Made by a program: the position numbers and the translations under genes. The notes below the pieces were generated by a model. The model saw only the letters and a program-made list of their open reading frames with translations. It was not told the DNA's origin and searched no databases. 64,000 nucleotides of DNA from Zhongshania aliphaticivorans (GTDB taxonomy: Bacteria > Pseudomonadota > Gammaproteobacteria > Pseudomonadales > Spongiibacteraceae): assembly GCF_902705855.1 (NCBI RefSeq), contig NZ_CACSIJ010000011.1, positions 101,094 through 165,093 on the forward strand, written 5' to 3'. Of the stretch, positions 3,695 to 9,464 are shown piece after piece; position 1 is the stretch's first letter; every line of letters begins with the position of its first letter.

Positions 3695-3734
3695 TTGTCA
3701 CACAACTGAAACATACTATTCACATATCTGTCAC
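3695..3734 (+). promoter_or_regulatory. Putative PhoB-binding Pho boxes (four 11-bp units)
   Basis: Four units repeat at an exact 11-bp step: TTGTCAC-ACAA (3695), CTGAAAC-ATAC (3706), TATTCAC-ATAT (3717) and CTGTCAC (3728). This matches the known Pho-box design, a CTGTCAT-like heptamer plus a 4-bp AT-rich spacer in tandem. The first and last units are near consensus and the middle two are weaker. A -10-like TACCAT (3745-3750) lies 10 bp after the last unit, the usual place in PhoB-activated promoters where the box replaces the -35. It should drive the lipoprotein at 3809 and probably the TonB receptor at 5614 under phosphate limitation. Confidence 0.65.
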
Positions 3735-3808
3735 TAAGTCTCCCTACCATACGCTACATAAATTCAATCCTGGTAAATCCTTAGAGTTGGTTTCGGAGAT
3801 AGTTAATT

Positions 3809-5500
3809 ATGAAAAAGCTTTTTGCACTGACAGCAATGTCATCTGCCTTATTACTGGCAGCTTGTGGTGGTGGCGATATTAATCTAAACCCAACAACTGT
3901 AGATAACAGCACCGGTGGTTCTAGTGGTGGTAATGGCGGCGGCACTAATAACCCTTGCGCGTCGTATGTTAAAAACGGCTCTACTGTCCAAGGTGCGTTT
4001 TCATCTGGAAACTGCTCATATAGCAGTTCCTTTGTTAGTGCAAACAACCCTATCACTGCTAGCCAAGTTACTTTTTCTGCCATTGCTGGTGTGCACGAGT
4101 TTGATGGAAGCTTGTTTATAGGTGCAGACGTTGACGGCCAAGCTGCAGCGTCAGGTACACCTGTTTTACAACAAGGCCAAGGTACCAAGCTGAATATCGA
4201 AGCTGGCGTGACGATGGTGTTTAAAAACGAAAATAGCTATGTGCGCATAACTCGTGGCTCACAGATATTTGCAAATGGTACGGCAACTGCGCCAATCATT
4301 TTTACAGCTGATGAAGATATTGACGGCTTTGCAACTGAAGACGATCGCGGCTTATGGGGTGGTTTGCAAATTAACGGTAACGGCATGACTAACAAGTGTC
4401 ATGACGGTACTGCAACTGGCTCAGGTACTGGTTCAGTTAGCGACTTTACAGCAACTGCAAATAATCCGCATAACTGTCACCAAGAAGCGGAAGGTCAGCC
4501 TGCAACTTACGGTGGCAATAACAACGCTGAAAGCTCAGGTGTCATGAAATATGTTGTTGTTAAACACGCTGGTTTCGAAGTTGTTGACGGTAATGAGCTG
4601 AATGCCTTTACCTTTAATGGCGTTGGTAGCGGCACGACCCTAAGTTATCTTCAAGCGTACACATCTAAAGATGATGGTTTTGAATTCTTTGGTGGCGCGG
4701 CAAATGCAGATCACTTAGTGGCTGTGAATGTAGGTGACGATTCAATCGATTACTCTGAAGGCTACAACGGCATGATCCAATATGCTGTGGTTGTTCACAC
4801 CTCAGGTTCTAACCGCTGTATCGAAGGCGATAACACCGGTGAAGGTCGTGGCGATGGTATTACGCCAACAACTAATCTGATCATTTCGAACATGACTTGT
4901 ATCACCTCGAATATTGATCAAAACGGCGGTATTAACGCGACCTCTAAAGGCGACTCGGAAGGCCCATTATTCCGCGAAGGTGCCTTCTTCCAAATGTACA
5001 ACTCAATCGTAACGTCTAACGCAGTAGATATGGCGAGTAATGAGTGTGTTGAGTTGGATGATACTGAAGGTCCACAAACTATCGACGCTGCACAAGCTAA
5101 AGTGAGTAAAGCGAGCAGTAACTTGATCGCGTGTAGCGAGCCATTGAAAGTGAGCGGTGACGCGACAAAAGGCTCGTTTGATCTAGCAAACTGGTTGAAC
5201 GGCGGTGGTGTGAATGCGGATACTCCTGCGAATGATAACGACAAGAACGTAGTGCTTACTGGTACAGATATTCCAGCACAAAGCCTGATCGTAGGTGGCG
5301 TTGGTACTCGCGGATATAAGACTGCAGCAACTATCACCAAGGCAGATGGAACGCCAGCGTTTAATCAAGCTGCCGATCTAACAGACGTATCTGCAGTGAA
5401 CTCATACTTCAAAAAGCCTAGCTACCTGGGCGGCGCCAGCGCAAGCGATGACTGGTTGGCTGGTTGGACTGTAGGTTTAAGCGCTCCACTTAATCCCTAA
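3809..5500 (+). CDS. Putative Pho-regulated outer-membrane lipoprotein, probably beta-helical
   Basis: This is a 563-residue lipoprotein of unknown function. Residues 1-19 form a lipoprotein signal ending LLAAC, with Gly at +2, which fits outer-membrane sorting. A Gly/Ser/Asn-rich linker follows to about residue 48. The rest is rich in short hydrophobic strands and Asn/Gly turns, such as GTKLNIEAGVTMVFKNE, GSQIFANGTATAPIIFTADED and RGLWGGLQINGNG. This pattern fits a right-handed beta-helix or adhesin-like fold. Several Cys are present (for example NPC, GNCSYS, NKCHDG, HNCHQ, NRCIEG, MTCIT) and may form disulphides. Putative Pho boxes lie upstream and a TonB receptor lies 113 bases downstream. 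A role as surface partner of that receptor, or as a phosphate-compound-binding or hydrolysing protein, is inference only. Confidence 0.75.
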   Translation: MKKLFALTAMSSALLLAACGGGDINLNPTTVDNSTGGSSGGNGGGTNNPCASYVKNGSTVQGAFSSGNCSYSSSFVSANNPITASQVTFSAIAGVHEFDGSLFIGADVDGQAAASGTPVLQQGQGTKLNIEAGVTMVFKNENSYVRITRGSQIFANGTATAPIIFTADEDIDGFATEDDRGLWGGLQINGNGMTNKCHDGTATGSGTGSVSDFTATANNPHNCHQEAEGQPATYGGNNNAESSGVMKYVVVKHAGFEVVDGNELNAFTFNGVGSGTTLSYLQAYTSKDDGFEFFGGAANADHLVAVNVGDDSIDYSEGYNGMIQYAVVVHTSGSNRCIEGDNTGEGRGDGITPTTNLIISNMTCITSNIDQNGGINATSKGDSEGPLFREGAFFQMYNSIVTSNAVDMASNECVELDDTEGPQTIDAAQAKVSKASSNLIACSEPLKVSGDATKGSFDLANWLNGGGVNADTPANDNDKNVVLTGTDIPAQSLIVGGVGTRGYKTAATITKADGTPAFNQAADLTDVSAVNSYFKKPSYLGGASASDDWLAGWTVGLSAPLNP

Positions 5501-5531
5501 GTTATACGGCAACACCCTGTAAAACAGGAAA

Positions 5532-5585
5532 GACGGGCTCCGGCCCGTCAGTAACAGCGCTAGAACGCTCTCCGTTCGTGAGAGC
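5532..5585 (+). terminator. Two tandem hairpins between the lipoprotein and TonB receptor genes
   Basis: GACGGGC (5532-5538) pairs with GCCCGTC (5543-5549) across a TCCG loop. GCTCTC (5567-5572) pairs with GAGAGC (5580-5585), followed by ATTTTCC. Together they could be a leaky terminator that lowers expression of the receptor relative to the lipoprotein, or a processing site in a shared mRNA. The T-tract is short, so full termination is doubtful. Confidence 0.45.
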
Positions 5586-5613
5586 ATTTTCCTGAGCACT
5601 TAGGATTATGATT

Positions 5614-8253
5614 ATGCTAACTAAACGATTTGCGCGAAAGCAGCTTCCAATAGCCGTAGCGCTGGCAAGCAGCGGGCTTATGAGCTCCGCAATAGCCCAG
5701 AACGGCGCGCCAGATGACAGCGACCAGTTCCGCCCCATCGCACTAGAAGAAGTGGTTGTGGTCGGTCGGCTACAAAGTGTAGCGGCCTCGTTAACTGACG
5801 AGCGTCTAGAATTACCTTATTCTGCAGACTTTCTTGGCTTTGAAGCCATCTCTCGCGCTGGCGATAGTACCATTGGCGCTGCGCTGCGCCGTGTTACCGG
5901 CGTGACGCTAGTAGACAATAAATTTATTTATATTCGAGGCCTTGGCGAGCGTTACAGCAACGTGACTGTTAACGGCGCGGCAGTGCCTTCACCAGATTTG
6001 GCGCGTAGTGTAATTCCTCTAGATTTGTTTCCCTCGAGTATTGTTGAATCACTAAAGGTGCAAAAATCGTGGGGCCCTGAATTGCCTGCTAACTTTGGTG
6101 GTGGTGCAATTGATATTCGTACACGCAGTGTTCCCAGTGGGCCAGTGGCTTCGGTAAGTATTGGCACTGGATTGAATACCGAAAGTGATAATGGCCTGAC
6201 CTACGCGAGTAGTGGTGGATCAATGCCCAAGGCATTGTCTGGTGCGATTGATCGCTACAAAGGGGATTTGTCACAAAGCAATATTCTTGACGTTGAAAAC
6301 GACGCCGGAAATGGCATTTCTCGCGACGAGGCTGAGCAAATTCAACGCAACTTAATTCGCTCGCTGAATCGCAATGTAGCGATTAAAAAAGCTAGTCTTG
6401 ATCCAGATCGTGATATTAAAGTCGATCTTGGAAATGCTTGGGATGTCAGTGATGACCTTGTTTTAGGTGCCTCTATAAGCGGCGCTTACGACGAAAAATA
6501 CCGCAATAAAAGCCAAGTTAAGCGTAGTATCGGTAGCCCGAATGACAGTTTTTCGAATGTGGACAGAACCGTTTACGAAGAACGCACAACCTTGGCGATT
6601 GTATTGGGTGCAGAATACGCAAACGACAATACCTTACAGCTTAGCCACTATCTGATTCAAAATGACGCGGACGAAGCTCGTATAACAACAGGGTTTAGCA
6701 ACAACAACCCCGCGTCGGAGAATCGTCCGGATGTGGACTATGTGACGCGTTTAGAAGAGCGTGAATTGGAATTAACTCAATTGTCTGGCAAGCATCGCTT
6801 GGGTGAGTTTTCCCCTATAGCAGCGTTAGAAATGCTGAGCTTTGATTGGTTTTACTCTGACGCGCAAGCGACCACAGACATTCCAAATGCAACAACATTC
6901 TCTGGCTCCATCGATAGAACGACATCACCAGAGACTCCCTTTATTTCACAATCATCTACCGCCGGCCAGTTTGCCTTTTTGTCGCTAGAAGATAATGTGG
7001 AAAGCTGGGGCGGACGAGCGGAATTGCCAATCGATATCGATGGCCGTGAGCTAACGGTTTCCGGTGGTTGGTGGAATTCTGAAAAATCACGGGAATATTA
7101 TGGTTACACCGCTAACGTGGGCACCAATGCAACGGTTGGTACACCACAAACAGTATTTACCGATGATCGAATCAACGACTTGAATAATGTTTTTGATATT
7201 TCGATGGGCTCTGGCTTTGGTAACGAAAGTTATGTAGCTGCGCAGAAAATTTCTGCGGTATACGGTGGTCTAGATTTTCGTATGACAGAAGAGTGGCGTT
7301 TGACGGTAGGTGCGCGCTGGGAAGAATATCAGCAAGCGGTATTGCCTGTTAACTTGCTCGACTATACCGGTGTCTTTAATCAGCAATTGATTAATCAGCT
7401 TCAGGATCCAAATCAAACATTTGCCTTCCAGAATGATGATATCTATTCGAGCTTTGCGCTTACCTATTCAGGTCTGGGTTTGATTGGGGCTGAAGAGTTT
7501 CAAGTTCGCTTTAGTGTCAGCGACACCGTTGTTCGCCCTGATTTACGTGAACTCGCAGACGTTGCCTATATCGATCCAGAGTTAAGTGTGCGCGTTTTCG
7601 GTAACCCAGCGTTGAAGTCCACGGATATCCGTAACTTTGATTTACGCGGTGAATTTTACTATGAAGGCGGCGACAATTTTACTGTGTCACTGTTCTATAA
7701 AGACTTAGATCTGCCTATCGAACAGGTTGAAGGCGCGGGTTCTGATGACGATACCGTTTTGCGTTATATAAACGGTGATTCCGGTGAAGTGTACGGTGTG
7801 GAGTTTGAGGGTTTAAAAACCTTGCCTGTGGGTTTCTTCTTGTCGGGTAACGTGACGTTAAGTGATTCGGAAATTTCGATCACCAGTAATAACGAAGTGA
7901 CTAATACCGACCGTCGTTTAACTGGGCATTCTAAGTACGTTGTAAATGCATCGCTTGGTTATGATTCGCCAGATGAGCGCCACAGTGCCTCACTGTTATA
8001 TAACATATCTAGTGAACGCATTTTCTTTGCCGGTACCTCGGGTAATGATGACGCATTTGAGCAGCCATTTGGTTCTTTAGACTTGATCTATAATTACTAC
8101 CCAACTGAAACGCTGTCATTAAAAGTGAAACTGTCGAATCTGCTAGATTCTAGCCGTGAATTTGAGCAGAAGAACAGTTCGGGCACGAATGTGAAAATAC
8201 TTGAGCAAGAAGTTGGCACAAGTGTTGGTCTAAGTTTGAGCTGGAAATACTGA
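5614..8253 (+). CDS. TonB-dependent outer-membrane receptor
   Basis: This is an 879-residue TonB-dependent receptor with a signal peptide ending SSAIAQ. A TonB box (LEEVVVVGR) follows. The plug domain contains STIGAALRRVTGVTL, IYIRGLGERYSNVTVNG and SSIVESLKVQKSWGPELPANFGGGAIDIRTR. A large beta-barrel ends in the aromatic LSLSWKY. The start at 5614 was chosen because AGGA at 5602-5605 is 8 bases away; the in-frame ATG at 5608 is only 2 bases from it. The substrate is not evident from sequence. The Pho boxes before the upstream lipoprotein suggest a phosphorus-containing ligand. A terminator follows at 8294. Confidence 0.9.
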   Translation: MLTKRFARKQLPIAVALASSGLMSSAIAQNGAPDDSDQFRPIALEEVVVVGRLQSVAASLTDERLELPYSADFLGFEAISRAGDSTIGAALRRVTGVTLVDNKFIYIRGLGERYSNVTVNGAAVPSPDLARSVIPLDLFPSSIVESLKVQKSWGPELPANFGGGAIDIRTRSVPSGPVASVSIGTGLNTESDNGLTYASSGGSMPKALSGAIDRYKGDLSQSNILDVENDAGNGISRDEAEQIQRNLIRSLNRNVAIKKASLDPDRDIKVDLGNAWDVSDDLVLGASISGAYDEKYRNKSQVKRSIGSPNDSFSNVDRTVYEERTTLAIVLGAEYANDNTLQLSHYLIQNDADEARITTGFSNNNPASENRPDVDYVTRLEERELELTQLSGKHRLGEFSPIAALEMLSFDWFYSDAQATTDIPNATTFSGSIDRTTSPETPFISQSSTAGQFAFLSLEDNVESWGGRAELPIDIDGRELTVSGGWWNSEKSREYYGYTANVGTNATVGTPQTVFTDDRINDLNNVFDISMGSGFGNESYVAAQKISAVYGGLDFRMTEEWRLTVGARWEEYQQAVLPVNLLDYTGVFNQQLINQLQDPNQTFAFQNDDIYSSFALTYSGLGLIGAEEFQVRFSVSDTVVRPDLRELADVAYIDPELSVRVFGNPALKSTDIRNFDLRGEFYYEGGDNFTVSLFYKDLDLPIEQVEGAGSDDDTVLRYINGDSGEVYGVEFEGLKTLPVGFFLSGNVTLSDSEISITSNNEVTNTDRRLTGHSKYVVNASLGYDSPDERHSASLLYNISSERIFFAGTSGNDDAFEQPFGSLDLIYNYYPTETLSLKVKLSNLLDSSREFEQKNSSGTNVKILEQEVGTSVGLSLSWKY

Positions 8254-8293
8254 TAAGTGACTCGGATGTTATAAGCAAAGGATTTGCTGAATT

Positions 8294-8316
8294 AGGCGCC
8301 GAAAGGCGCCTTTTTT
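8294..8316 (+). terminator. Intrinsic terminator after the TonB receptor
   Basis: AGGCGCC (8294-8300) pairs with GGCGCCT across a GAAA loop, followed by a run of T. It lies between the receptor and the convergent TPR lipoprotein gene and may serve both strands. Confidence 0.85.
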
Positions 8317-8330
8317 GTGATTAAAAATAA

Positions 8331-9464
8331 TTAATTGGTGCTGAGTTTTAATCTGCTGGCCTTATCGGAAAATTGTTGGGCGCGAACTAATTTTCCTTGA
8401 CGGAAATAGATTAAAGAGGCAAATCGATAAAAGCGGTATTCATCTTTTTGAAGGCGGATCGCCTGTTGAATAAATTTTAAGGCCTCGTCAAAATCACCTT
8501 TCTCATACTCCGCCTTGGCGCGGCTAAAATGCCAGAATGGGTTTTTCTTGCGGAAACTTCCGGCAATGTCTTCGAGTTTTCGGGCTTCGTCTTTGTTACC
8601 CTGTTCACGATAGAAGCGTCCTAGATTGCTAATGGCAACTTGGTCGTTGGGGTTGAGAGCTAGTGCATGCCGATAAGCAATTTCGGCGTCAGTCGCACGT
8701 TTTTGGCGACGCAATAGCGTGCCTAAATTTCCCCAAATATGCCCAGCGTCTGGGTCTAAGAATAGCGCGCGCCGAAAATATAAGTCTGCTTTTTCATTAT
8801 TTCCCTGATTAAGGTATTCCGCGCCGCGATTATTGTAATGCTGGGCTGCTGCTTGTTGCTCGGTGACCCTGTGCTGGGGGTAATGATACTCATAGTTGTC
8901 CACGCTTAGGTCAACGACTTCTTTACCGTCTTCACCAAAATCCACAACAGCATTGATGTGTTTATAAAACACCATGCTATTGTCGCTGACCATGTCCCAG
9001 CTTGGCGGAATAGTGACCTCATTGTAGTAAACCTTTAATTTTGCCTCTCGGGCTAAGGCTATAAATAAAGACGTGAGCGACAAACAGTTTCCGGTTCTTT
9101 GTTGAAAAGTTTCGGTGGCGTTTAGGGTGATGCCGGGGTCATATGTTAGTCCCAGTTGCGACGGTCTAACCATGCTGTCGAGCAGATAGCTCAAGCGGGC
9201 TCGCGGGGAAAGTGCGGCAGGTACGTTTTCTTCTACGAAATAGCGCATTTCAGCGTTCATCGCCAGAATATTGTCTTCTGGATATATGCTGACATCTACG
9301 CCTTCACTGCCTTGCTTTGGCAATAATAGGGCGGTGACCTGTTCGCTACTGGGTGCTTGAATATCCAATGTCGCTACGTCGCGAATCTCGGTATTGCTAC
9401 AAGCTATCAAGCTGCTAAAAATAGCGACGGCTAATACGTTTTTAGAGAATACAGGCATCTTCAC
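8331..9464 (-). CDS. Transglutaminase-like/TPR lipoprotein
   Basis: This is a 377-residue lipoprotein with a signal ending SLIAC (Cys22). The middle holds a transglutaminase-like (papain-fold) core: Cys in RTGNCLSLTSLFIALARE, His in VFYKHINAVVDF, and Asp in VVDLSVDNYEYHY. These could form a Cys-His-Asp triad. The C-terminal half has about four tetratricopeptide repeats, such as AEYLNQGNNEKADLYFRRALFLDPD and GTLLRRQKRATDAEIAYRHALALNPN. TPR domains bind proteins, so it may be a periplasmic scaffold or processing factor. The gene converges on the TonB receptor and shares its terminator zone. Membership of the Pho module is only suggested by position. Confidence 0.8.
   Translation of the reverse strand: MKMPVFSKNVLAVAIFSSLIACSNTEIRDVATLDIQAPSSEQVTALLLPKQGSEGVDVSIYPEDNILAMNAEMRYFVEENVPAALSPRARLSYLLDSMVRPSQLGLTYDPGITLNATETFQQRTGNCLSLTSLFIALAREAKLKVYYNEVTIPPSWDMVSDNSMVFYKHINAVVDFGEDGKEVVDLSVDNYEYHYPQHRVTEQQAAAQHYNNRGAEYLNQGNNEKADLYFRRALFLDPDAGHIWGNLGTLLRRQKRATDAEIAYRHALALNPNDQVAISNLGRFYREQGNKDEARKLEDIAGSFRKKNPFWHFSRAKAEYEKGDFDEALKFIQQAIRLQKDEYRFYRFASLIYFRQGKLVRAQQFSDKASRLKLSTN

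What the first reader, a model, noticed from the sequence alone, without database searches (positions are those of the whole stretch)
3695..9464. Phosphate-starvation outer-membrane module: Pho boxes, orphan lipoprotein, TonB receptor and TPR/transglutaminase lipoprotein
Seen: four 11-bp units with TTGTCAC/CTGTCAC heptamers and a -10-like TACCAT at the right distance; a secreted Cys-containing lipoprotein of unrecognised family; a TonB receptor 113 bases on; a convergent Cys-His-Asp/TPR lipoprotein. Known: PhoB boxes have this geometry, and lipoprotein-TonB receptor pairs often capture ligands at the cell surface. Inference: the set imports or processes a phosphorus-containing compound when phosphate is scarce. 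I know of no described system with this exact composition.
Basis: partly seen in the sequence, partly recalled or inferred. Interest (0 to 1): 0.72.

Follow-up and report, generated by a model that had tools for sequence, protein, structure and literature searches.

The report
Phosphate-starvation surface lipoprotein and its importer
In this marine bacterium, four repeats that match phosphate-control boxes stand before a gene for a predicted lipoprotein and a gene for an outer-membrane import receptor; the two are predicted to be switched on when phosphate runs short and likely work together to capture and import a phosphorus-containing compound, and because the pair recurs across many proteobacteria, the unsolved job of the likely related Caulobacter starvation lipoprotein ElpS would become testable.

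Summary
Before the lipoprotein gene (LP, 3809-5500) lie four Pho half-sites at exact 11-bp spacing (3695-3734), followed 10 nt later by a -10-like TACCAT. It is the best four-unit site in 463 kb of this genome, above the pst site. Of 18 near loci (window included) 17 keep it, and it recurs upstream of 56 of 78 distant LP homologues against 16 of 620 other genes. A TonB-dependent receptor (TBDR) follows LP in 79 of 80 distant loci. In some lineages a TonB2-type energiser lies close by, Pho-boxed in six of six Pseudidiomarina loci, or phoBR lies next door. LP is predicted to be a right-handed beta-helix (pLDDT 89) and is homologous to Caulobacter lipoproteins, probably of the ElpS type. ElpS with its neighbouring receptor Cc0171 was described in 2010 and related Flavobacterium lipoproteins in 2020, so this is a new member of a known but functionally unsolved kind. 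The convergent TPR lipoprotein is nearly confined to the genus and has no Pho box; it is not part of the module. Most likely LP captures a phosphorus compound and TBDR imports it; substrate unknown, import inferred.

The parts
3695..3734 (+). Four tandem 11-bp Pho units (TTGTCAC, CTGAAAC, TATTCAC, CTGTCAC)
   Evidence: top score of 463 kb; score 24 or more in 17 of 18 near loci, window included, and 56 of 78 distant homologues
3745..3750 (+). -10-like hexamer TACCAT, exactly 10 nt after the last Pho unit
   Evidence: TANNNT at exactly 10 nt in 18 of 18 near loci; at 8-12 nt in 34 of 56 distant boxes (33 at exactly 10) against 8% of shuffled tails
3809..5500 (+). LP: 563-aa predicted lipoprotein whose relatives carry PF28492; predicted right-handed parallel beta-helix
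5501..5607 (+). LP-TBDR intergenic stretch with strong hairpins, the last followed by ATTTT; possible attenuator setting LP above TBDR (inferred)
   Evidence: fold of 5498-5600: z -3.65, 0 of 200 shuffles; last hairpin 96.7% of cells paired in 10 genomes, window included, but covariation weak, 38 of 500 shuffles as high
5608..8253 (+). TBDR: 881-aa TonB-dependent receptor with plug and barrel, no signalling domain found
   Evidence: PF07715 and PF00593 above cut-off and no other family up to E 1; TIGR01782 match below cut-off
8331..9464 (-). Convergent TPR lipoprotein: neighbour, judged NOT part of the module

Best explanation
Four tandem repeats matching Pho boxes, with a -10-like hexamer behind them, stand before the genes of a predicted lipoprotein and a TonB-dependent receptor, and they likely let PhoB switch the genes on when phosphate is scarce, so that the lipoprotein, predicted to be a beta-helix on the cell surface, would capture a phosphorus-containing compound and hand it to the receptor, which would import it into the periplasm. 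Shown: the box architecture and its conservation, the gene pairing, and the family relationship to Caulobacter lipoproteins. Predicted: the fold. Inferred: PhoB binding and induction, surface exposure, complex formation, import, and release of phosphate by periplasmic phosphatases for the Pst system that this genome encodes. TBDR has no Pho box of its own, so it is either co-transcribed through the hairpin-containing gap (the hairpins possibly keeping LP in excess) or constitutive, as reported for Cc0171.
For: Site strength and genome background. 17 of 18 near loci score 24 or more and 18 of 18 have TANNNT at exactly 10 nt. 56 of 78 distant LP upstreams against 16 of 620 other genes, 2 of 78 reversed LP upstreams and 0 of 72 TBDR upstreams; 14 of those 16 are DUF3450, porin or gspD neighbours and one a PhoB-like regulator. 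TBDR next to LP in 18 of 18 and 79 of 80, and within about 3.2 kb in 20 of 20. Own phoB, phoR, pstS and phoU above NCBIfam cut-offs. phoB-phoR divergent beside LP in Gilvimarinus polysaccharolyticus (L087). A phoB-phoR-pstS-x-LP-TBDR-DUF3450-TtpC-ExbB-ExbD-TonB-TtpD run in L220 (BLAST assignments). DUF3450-TtpC-ExbB genes near the pair in 15 of 80 loci, with their own Pho box in 6 of 6 Pseudidiomarina and, at score 24 or more, 2 of 9 Pseudoalteromonas loci. ElpS is made at low phosphate and sits on the surface (PMC2996285).
Against: No ligand or phosphatase is shown. Deleting elpS did not change supernatant phosphatase activity, no significant change of intracellular phosphate was detected on the shift to poor medium and cc0171 was reported constitutive (both data not shown by the authors). 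22 of 78 distant loci score below 24. Only 3 of 20 loci reach 24. No site above 21.9 lies in the 15-kb stretch with the own genome's DUF3450-TonB operon. The TonB_C genes beside the pair in 15 other loci have no Pho box (0 of 12 and 0 of 3). The beta-helix fold is shared with many carbohydrate-active enzymes.
Confidence: 0.58

Rival explanations
1. LP is an enzyme or an activator of extracellular phosphatases, as proposed for ElpS, and the TBDR takes up the product or is only loosely coupled.
For: Overproduced ElpS raises secreted alkaline phosphatase activity (PMC2996285). The LP model resembles polysaccharide lyases, epimerases and polygalacturonases in fold. Acidic positions E263, D288, D289, E292, D310, D311, D314 and E339 are invariant in 69 of 69 aligned family members, 9 of 9 Caulobacterales-type homologues picked (eight named, one unnamed) and the membrane-anchored homologue of this genome, as in an active or metal site.
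Against: Refolded and immunoprecipitated ElpS showed no phosphatase activity and deletion no loss. A shared fold shows no function. The near-obligatory TBDR neighbour (79 of 80) suggests coupling. Conservation around position 260 is partly built in, because the locus scan used that stretch.
Confidence: 0.22
2. The pair imports not phosphorus but a cofactor needed under phosphate starvation, such as a metal for phosphatases or a quinone cofactor, or it scavenges phosphate-free glycans.
For: E. coli PqqU, a TBDR, imports PQQ, which serves a phosphate-limitation-induced dehydrogenase (PMC11658791, passage). Conserved acidic ladder. Lyase-like fold.
Against: ElpS was not upregulated by iron depletion nor affected by added iron. 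Neighbours include phoBR, pstS and Pho-boxed porins in some lineages.
Confidence: 0.15
3. The Pho boxes are a chance match or serve another regulator.
For: Only two of the four units are exact heptamers.
Confidence: 0.02

Closest known systems
ElpS (Cc0170) - Cc0171 - type II secretion locus of Caulobacter crescentus (PMC2996285)
   Same: Surface lipoprotein followed directly by a TonB-dependent receptor; phosphate-starvation control; named Caulobacter homologues share the family (PF28492) and one is 32% identical to LP; the LP-TBDR-gsp order occurs in five of the 20 loci, and gspC-gspD follow the pair in eight Pseudohongiella-type loci.
   Different: In the window no type II secretion genes follow. 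Here Pho boxes are shown and conserved. cc0171 was reported constitutive. The sequence of ElpS itself was not compared.
FI/FII/FIII lipoproteins and phosphate-utilisation clusters of Flavobacterium johnsoniae (PMC8115612)
   Same: Low-phosphate lipoproteins modelled on a polygalacturonase, reported 31-36% identical (over 50-54% coverage) to the Caulobacter lipoprotein; FI in a cluster with a TBDT, FII in a cluster with phoBR.
   Different: Bacteroidota; the FI cluster has a protease and a phosphodiesterase; not compared by sequence here.
SusCD / PusCD
   Same: Lipoprotein plus TonB-dependent transporter working as a capture-and-import pair.
   Different: LP has no SusD domain and its gene precedes the receptor gene.
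TonB2 system of Vibrio (TtpC, ExbB, ExbD, TonB plus TtpB and TtpD)
   Same: A like gene set (DUF3450, TtpC-like, ExbB, ExbD, TonB, TPR) lies beside the pair in Pseudoalteromonas and L220; its first three genes lie one gene away in Pseudidiomarina.
   Different: Described for iron (PMC6957404, title and abstract start in the listing); that DUF3450 and the TPR protein are TtpB and TtpD is recalled. Pho-boxed in Pseudidiomarina. Absent next to the window's pair.

Membership tests
PhoB-dependent promoter | tandem 11-bp direct repeats resembling CTGTCAT | tested here: met
PhoB-dependent promoter | -10 hexamer about 10 nt downstream of the last unit | tested here: met
PhoB-dependent promoter | genome encodes PhoB, PhoR, Pst | tested here: met
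   PhoB, PhoR, PstS, PhoU above cut-off; PstC 192.7 vs 196.45 bits, just below
PhoB-dependent promoter | PhoB binding and induction at low phosphate | not testable with these tools
   needs experiment
ElpS-type lipoprotein | sequence family shared with Caulobacter homologues | tested here: met
   32% identity, E 7e-54 to a Caulobacter endophyticus protein; same Pfam accession
ElpS-type lipoprotein | homology to ElpS (Cc0170) itself | not tested
   the Cc0170 sequence was not obtained; named Caulobacter homologues used instead
ElpS-type lipoprotein | lipobox signal peptide | tested here: met
   LAAC, Cys19, read from the translation
ElpS-type lipoprotein | adjacent TonB-dependent receptor | tested here: met
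ElpS-type lipoprotein | type II secretion genes follow the receptor | tested here: not met
   window has a convergent TPR gene; T2SS genes follow in 8 of 80 loci by cluster and in 5 of 20 loci, so it is not a constant feature
ElpS-type lipoprotein | surface exposure, release by a secreted protease | not testable with these tools
   needs experiment
SusCD/PusCD | SusD-family lipoprotein | tested here: not met
   no Pfam family with E up to 1
Beta-helix carbohydrate-active enzymes (PL6, GH28, epimerases) | sequence-level family match | tested here: not met
   no Pfam match up to E 1; PDB profile search no match up to E 0.1
Beta-helix carbohydrate-active enzymes (PL6, GH28, epimerases) | right-handed parallel beta-helix fold | tested here: met

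The most novel reading that the evidence does not exclude
ElpS-type beta-helix lipoproteins and their receptors form a proteobacterial counterpart of SusCD dedicated to phosphorus: a phosphate-starvation-induced, TonB-driven importer of intact phosphorus-rich molecules, with its own Pho-controlled TonB-ExbB-ExbD-TtpC motor in some marine lineages.
Probability: 0.4. Interest if true: 0.76.

Novelty: new member of a known kind. Interest (0 to 1): 0.5.

Why it matters
ElpS and the Flavobacterium FI lipoprotein are strongly phosphate-starvation-induced surface or secreted proteins (FI was the most abundant exoprotein at low phosphate, PMC8115612), yet their job is unknown. The broad pairing of this lipoprotein with a TonB receptor, Pho boxes in front of it across many Gammaproteobacteria, and a Pho-boxed TonB-type motor close by in one lineage turn 'activator of a phosphatase' into a testable import hypothesis. 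If true, these Gram-negative bacteria would actively import phosphorus compounds across the outer membrane instead of relying on porins alone, which bears on phosphorus cycling in the sea.

Tried and rejected
TPR lipoprotein as a third component: rejected. A second LP copy in the genome (C16): its ORF reads as a protein with a cytoplasmic-looking head, a hydrophobic stretch and a beta-helix-family domain (read by eye), and no receptor match lies in the 14-kb stretch (tblastn), so it is not a paralogous pair. A dedicated Pho-boxed TonB system in this genome: none found; the DUF3450-TonB operon at C18 lies in a 15-kb stretch whose best site is 21.9. A solved relative: none by sequence for LP (only two chance-level hits up to E 1) or TBDR. 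PhoB next to LP elsewhere: response regulators in L075, L098 and L124 are below the PhoB cut-off; of the four typed only L087 passes. Intergenic hairpins: strong, but covariation weak. The first structure model (19 sequences, pLDDT 69) was superseded by the second (69 sequences). PHROGs: no match. Foldseek gave no match below E 0.001; families not listed there are not excluded.

Limits of the counts: the Pho score weights were set by hand from the recalled E. coli consensus, after I had seen the window and the genus alignment but before the distant loci were scored. tabulates thresholds 23 to 26 (LP 63, 56, 38 and 22 of 78; other genes 20, 16, 13 and 9 of 620); I quote 24, picked after one search had shown the distant scores. 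The 80 loci are the best 80 of 124 confirmed in one scan, contain several species per genus and are not independent. Two of the 80 had too little upstream DNA and were dropped from the 78. The 620 control genes come from the same loci. Start codons of LP homologues were picked by a lipobox rule. The phylum search found the family in 30 of 299 genomes at E 1e-10, own genome included; I fetched 20 loci from it. Of the gene clusters only representatives were typed.
Full report
WHAT IS THERE. The window lies in a Zhongshania-like genome: the contig holding the 98%-identical orthologue in G017 has the same length, 351037, as the Zhongshania marina ZX-21 record. Four heptamers, TTGTCAC, CTGAAAC, TATTCAC and CTGTCAC, start at 3695, 3706, 3717 and 3728, and TACCAT begins exactly 10 nt after the last one. 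They precede a 563-aa predicted lipoprotein (LP) and, 107 nt after its stop, an 881-aa TonB-dependent receptor (TBDR) with plug and barrel domains above Pfam cut-offs. The convergent ORF 8331-9464 is a TPR protein with a lipobox-like signal whose transglutaminase match is below cut-off.

IS IT MORE THAN CHANCE. I scored four-unit sites with a hand-set matrix based on the recalled E. coli consensus. Over 463 kb of this genome (both strands, 926,362 positions) the site at 3695 is first with 27.1; second and third are overlapping sites before pstC, 24.8 and 24.2; the reversed control peaks at 23.2. The genome encodes phoB, phoR, pstS and phoU above NCBIfam cut-offs, with pstC just below. In 18 near loci (the window, 16 others of the genus and one of the same family), 17 score 24 or more and all 18 carry TANNNT at exactly 10 nt. 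One genus genome, G003 (84% complete), gave only the match to the other beta-helix protein, not to LP.

DISTANT RELATIVES. One scan of named genomes kept the best 80 of 124 LP loci, most of them labelled gammaproteobacterial, down to 32% identity. The receptor follows on the same strand in 79 of 80; in the last, L148, the contig ends in LP. In the 78 loci with 300 bp upstream, 56 have a site of 24 or more, against 16 of 620 other genes in the same loci, 2 of 78 reversed LP upstreams, and 0 of 72 upstreams of the receptor. Of the 16, 8 precede DUF3450, 4 a porin-cluster gene, 2 gspD and 1 a PhoB-like regulator; one is unexplained. Of the 56 boxes, 34 have TANNNT 8-12 nt behind, 33 of them at exactly 10 nt, against 8% of shuffled tails. 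The 22 misses include Pseudohongiella and similar genomes (L095 to L101, L104), Litorivivens and another Spongiibacteraceae genome, one of two Woeseiaceae loci, and a mix of metagenome-assembled genomes.

NEIGHBOURS. Fifteen of 80 loci carry DUF3450, TtpC-like and ExbB-like genes: nine Pseudoalteromonas directly upstream, where the run also holds ExbD, TonB and a TPR protein, and six Pseudidiomarina downstream, one mechanosensitive-channel gene away, where the held DNA ends after ExbB (Pfam on L139 and L116 representatives). In Pseudidiomarina this operon has its own Pho box in 6 of 6, scores 26.4-28.3; in Pseudoalteromonas 2 of 9 reach 24. Twelve loci have a TonB_C protein downstream and three have one upstream (one representative of each typed, the second match below Pfam's cut-off), none with a Pho box. 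In Gilvimarinus polysaccharolyticus phoB-phoR lie divergently beside LP, both above NCBIfam cut-offs. Eight Pseudohongiella-type loci have type II secretion genes downstream, with Pho boxes before gspD in 2 of 8; a porin cluster has Pho boxes in 4 of 6 copies.

WHAT IS KNOWN. Le Blastier et al. 2010 (PMC2996285; I saw the abstract, passages, sections 5, 8, 11, 12 and the first of three parts of Results) describe ElpS, Cc0170, a surface lipoprotein of Caulobacter made under phosphate starvation; the next gene, cc0171, is a TonB-dependent receptor, and type II secretion genes follow. They note that the two co-occur in genomes and suggest a role in phosphate mobilisation or uptake. Overproduced ElpS raised phosphatase activity in supernatants, deletion did not lower it, and refolded or immunoprecipitated ElpS was inactive. 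The ISME Journal paper of 2020 on plant-associated Bacteroidetes (PMC8115612; abstract passage, other passages, section 16) reports Flavobacterium lipoproteins FI-FIII, related to the Caulobacter lipoprotein, FI being the most abundant exoprotein at low phosphate in a cluster with a TBDT, FII in a cluster with phoBR. PMC11208175 (passages) lists TonB receptors in the Caulobacter PhoB regulon. The Cc0170 sequence itself was not obtained. In 299 Pseudomonadota genomes the family profile matched 30, own included; in 20 fetched loci a receptor lies within about 3.2 kb on the same strand in 20 of 20, 18 downstream of LP and two upstream, and LP-TBDR-gspD/E order occurs in L202, L203, L205, L211 and L215.

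INTERPRETATION. The Pho boxes are close to certain as a sequence feature; PhoB binding is inferred. The pairing and the neighbouring TonB-type genes argue for TonB-driven import coupled to LP; that the cargo carries phosphorus follows from the regulation and is inferred.

NOVELTY. The module is a gammaproteobacterial member of what is most likely the ElpS/Cc0171 kind. I found no paper on its Pho-box conservation in Gammaproteobacteria or on a Pho-boxed TonB2-type operon beside it (ten searches; open-licence library only, so absence there is weak evidence).

Noticed in passing
window 5501-5607: Strong hairpins between LP and TBDR (z -3.65), the last followed by ATTTT; the last one pairs in ten close genomes, window included, but covariation is weak.
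   Followed up: partly
L069:6559-8196 (own genome C16): A homologous beta-helix-family domain sits on a protein with a cytoplasmic-looking head and a hydrophobic stretch; no receptor match in the 14-kb stretch. It keeps the acidic ladder.
   Followed up: partly
L215, L216, L220: LP is duplicated into a two-domain protein of about 930 residues.
   Followed up: no
L116, L123, L133, L134, L138, L142: DUF3450-TtpC-ExbB operons of Pseudidiomarina carry strong Pho boxes of their own (26.4-28.3).
   Followed up: partly
L092 and L093, before gspD: Very strong Pho boxes (28.9, 29.3) upstream of a type II secretin gene in Pseudohongiella-type genomes, absent in the six other copies.
   Followed up: no
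LP homologues, residue after the lipobox Cys: Of 66 homologues with a recognisable lipobox 34 have Gly, 15 Asp, 9 Glu, 6 Ser and 2 Thr at +2; Asp there is an inner-membrane retention signal in E. coli (recalled), so sorting may differ between lineages.
   Followed up: no
L075 and L076, about 1 kb upstream of LP: A response regulator nearest to PhoB but below its cut-off (L075 typed) lies upstream of LP in both Woeseiaceae loci; the L076 copy has a site of 24.1 before it.
   Followed up: no
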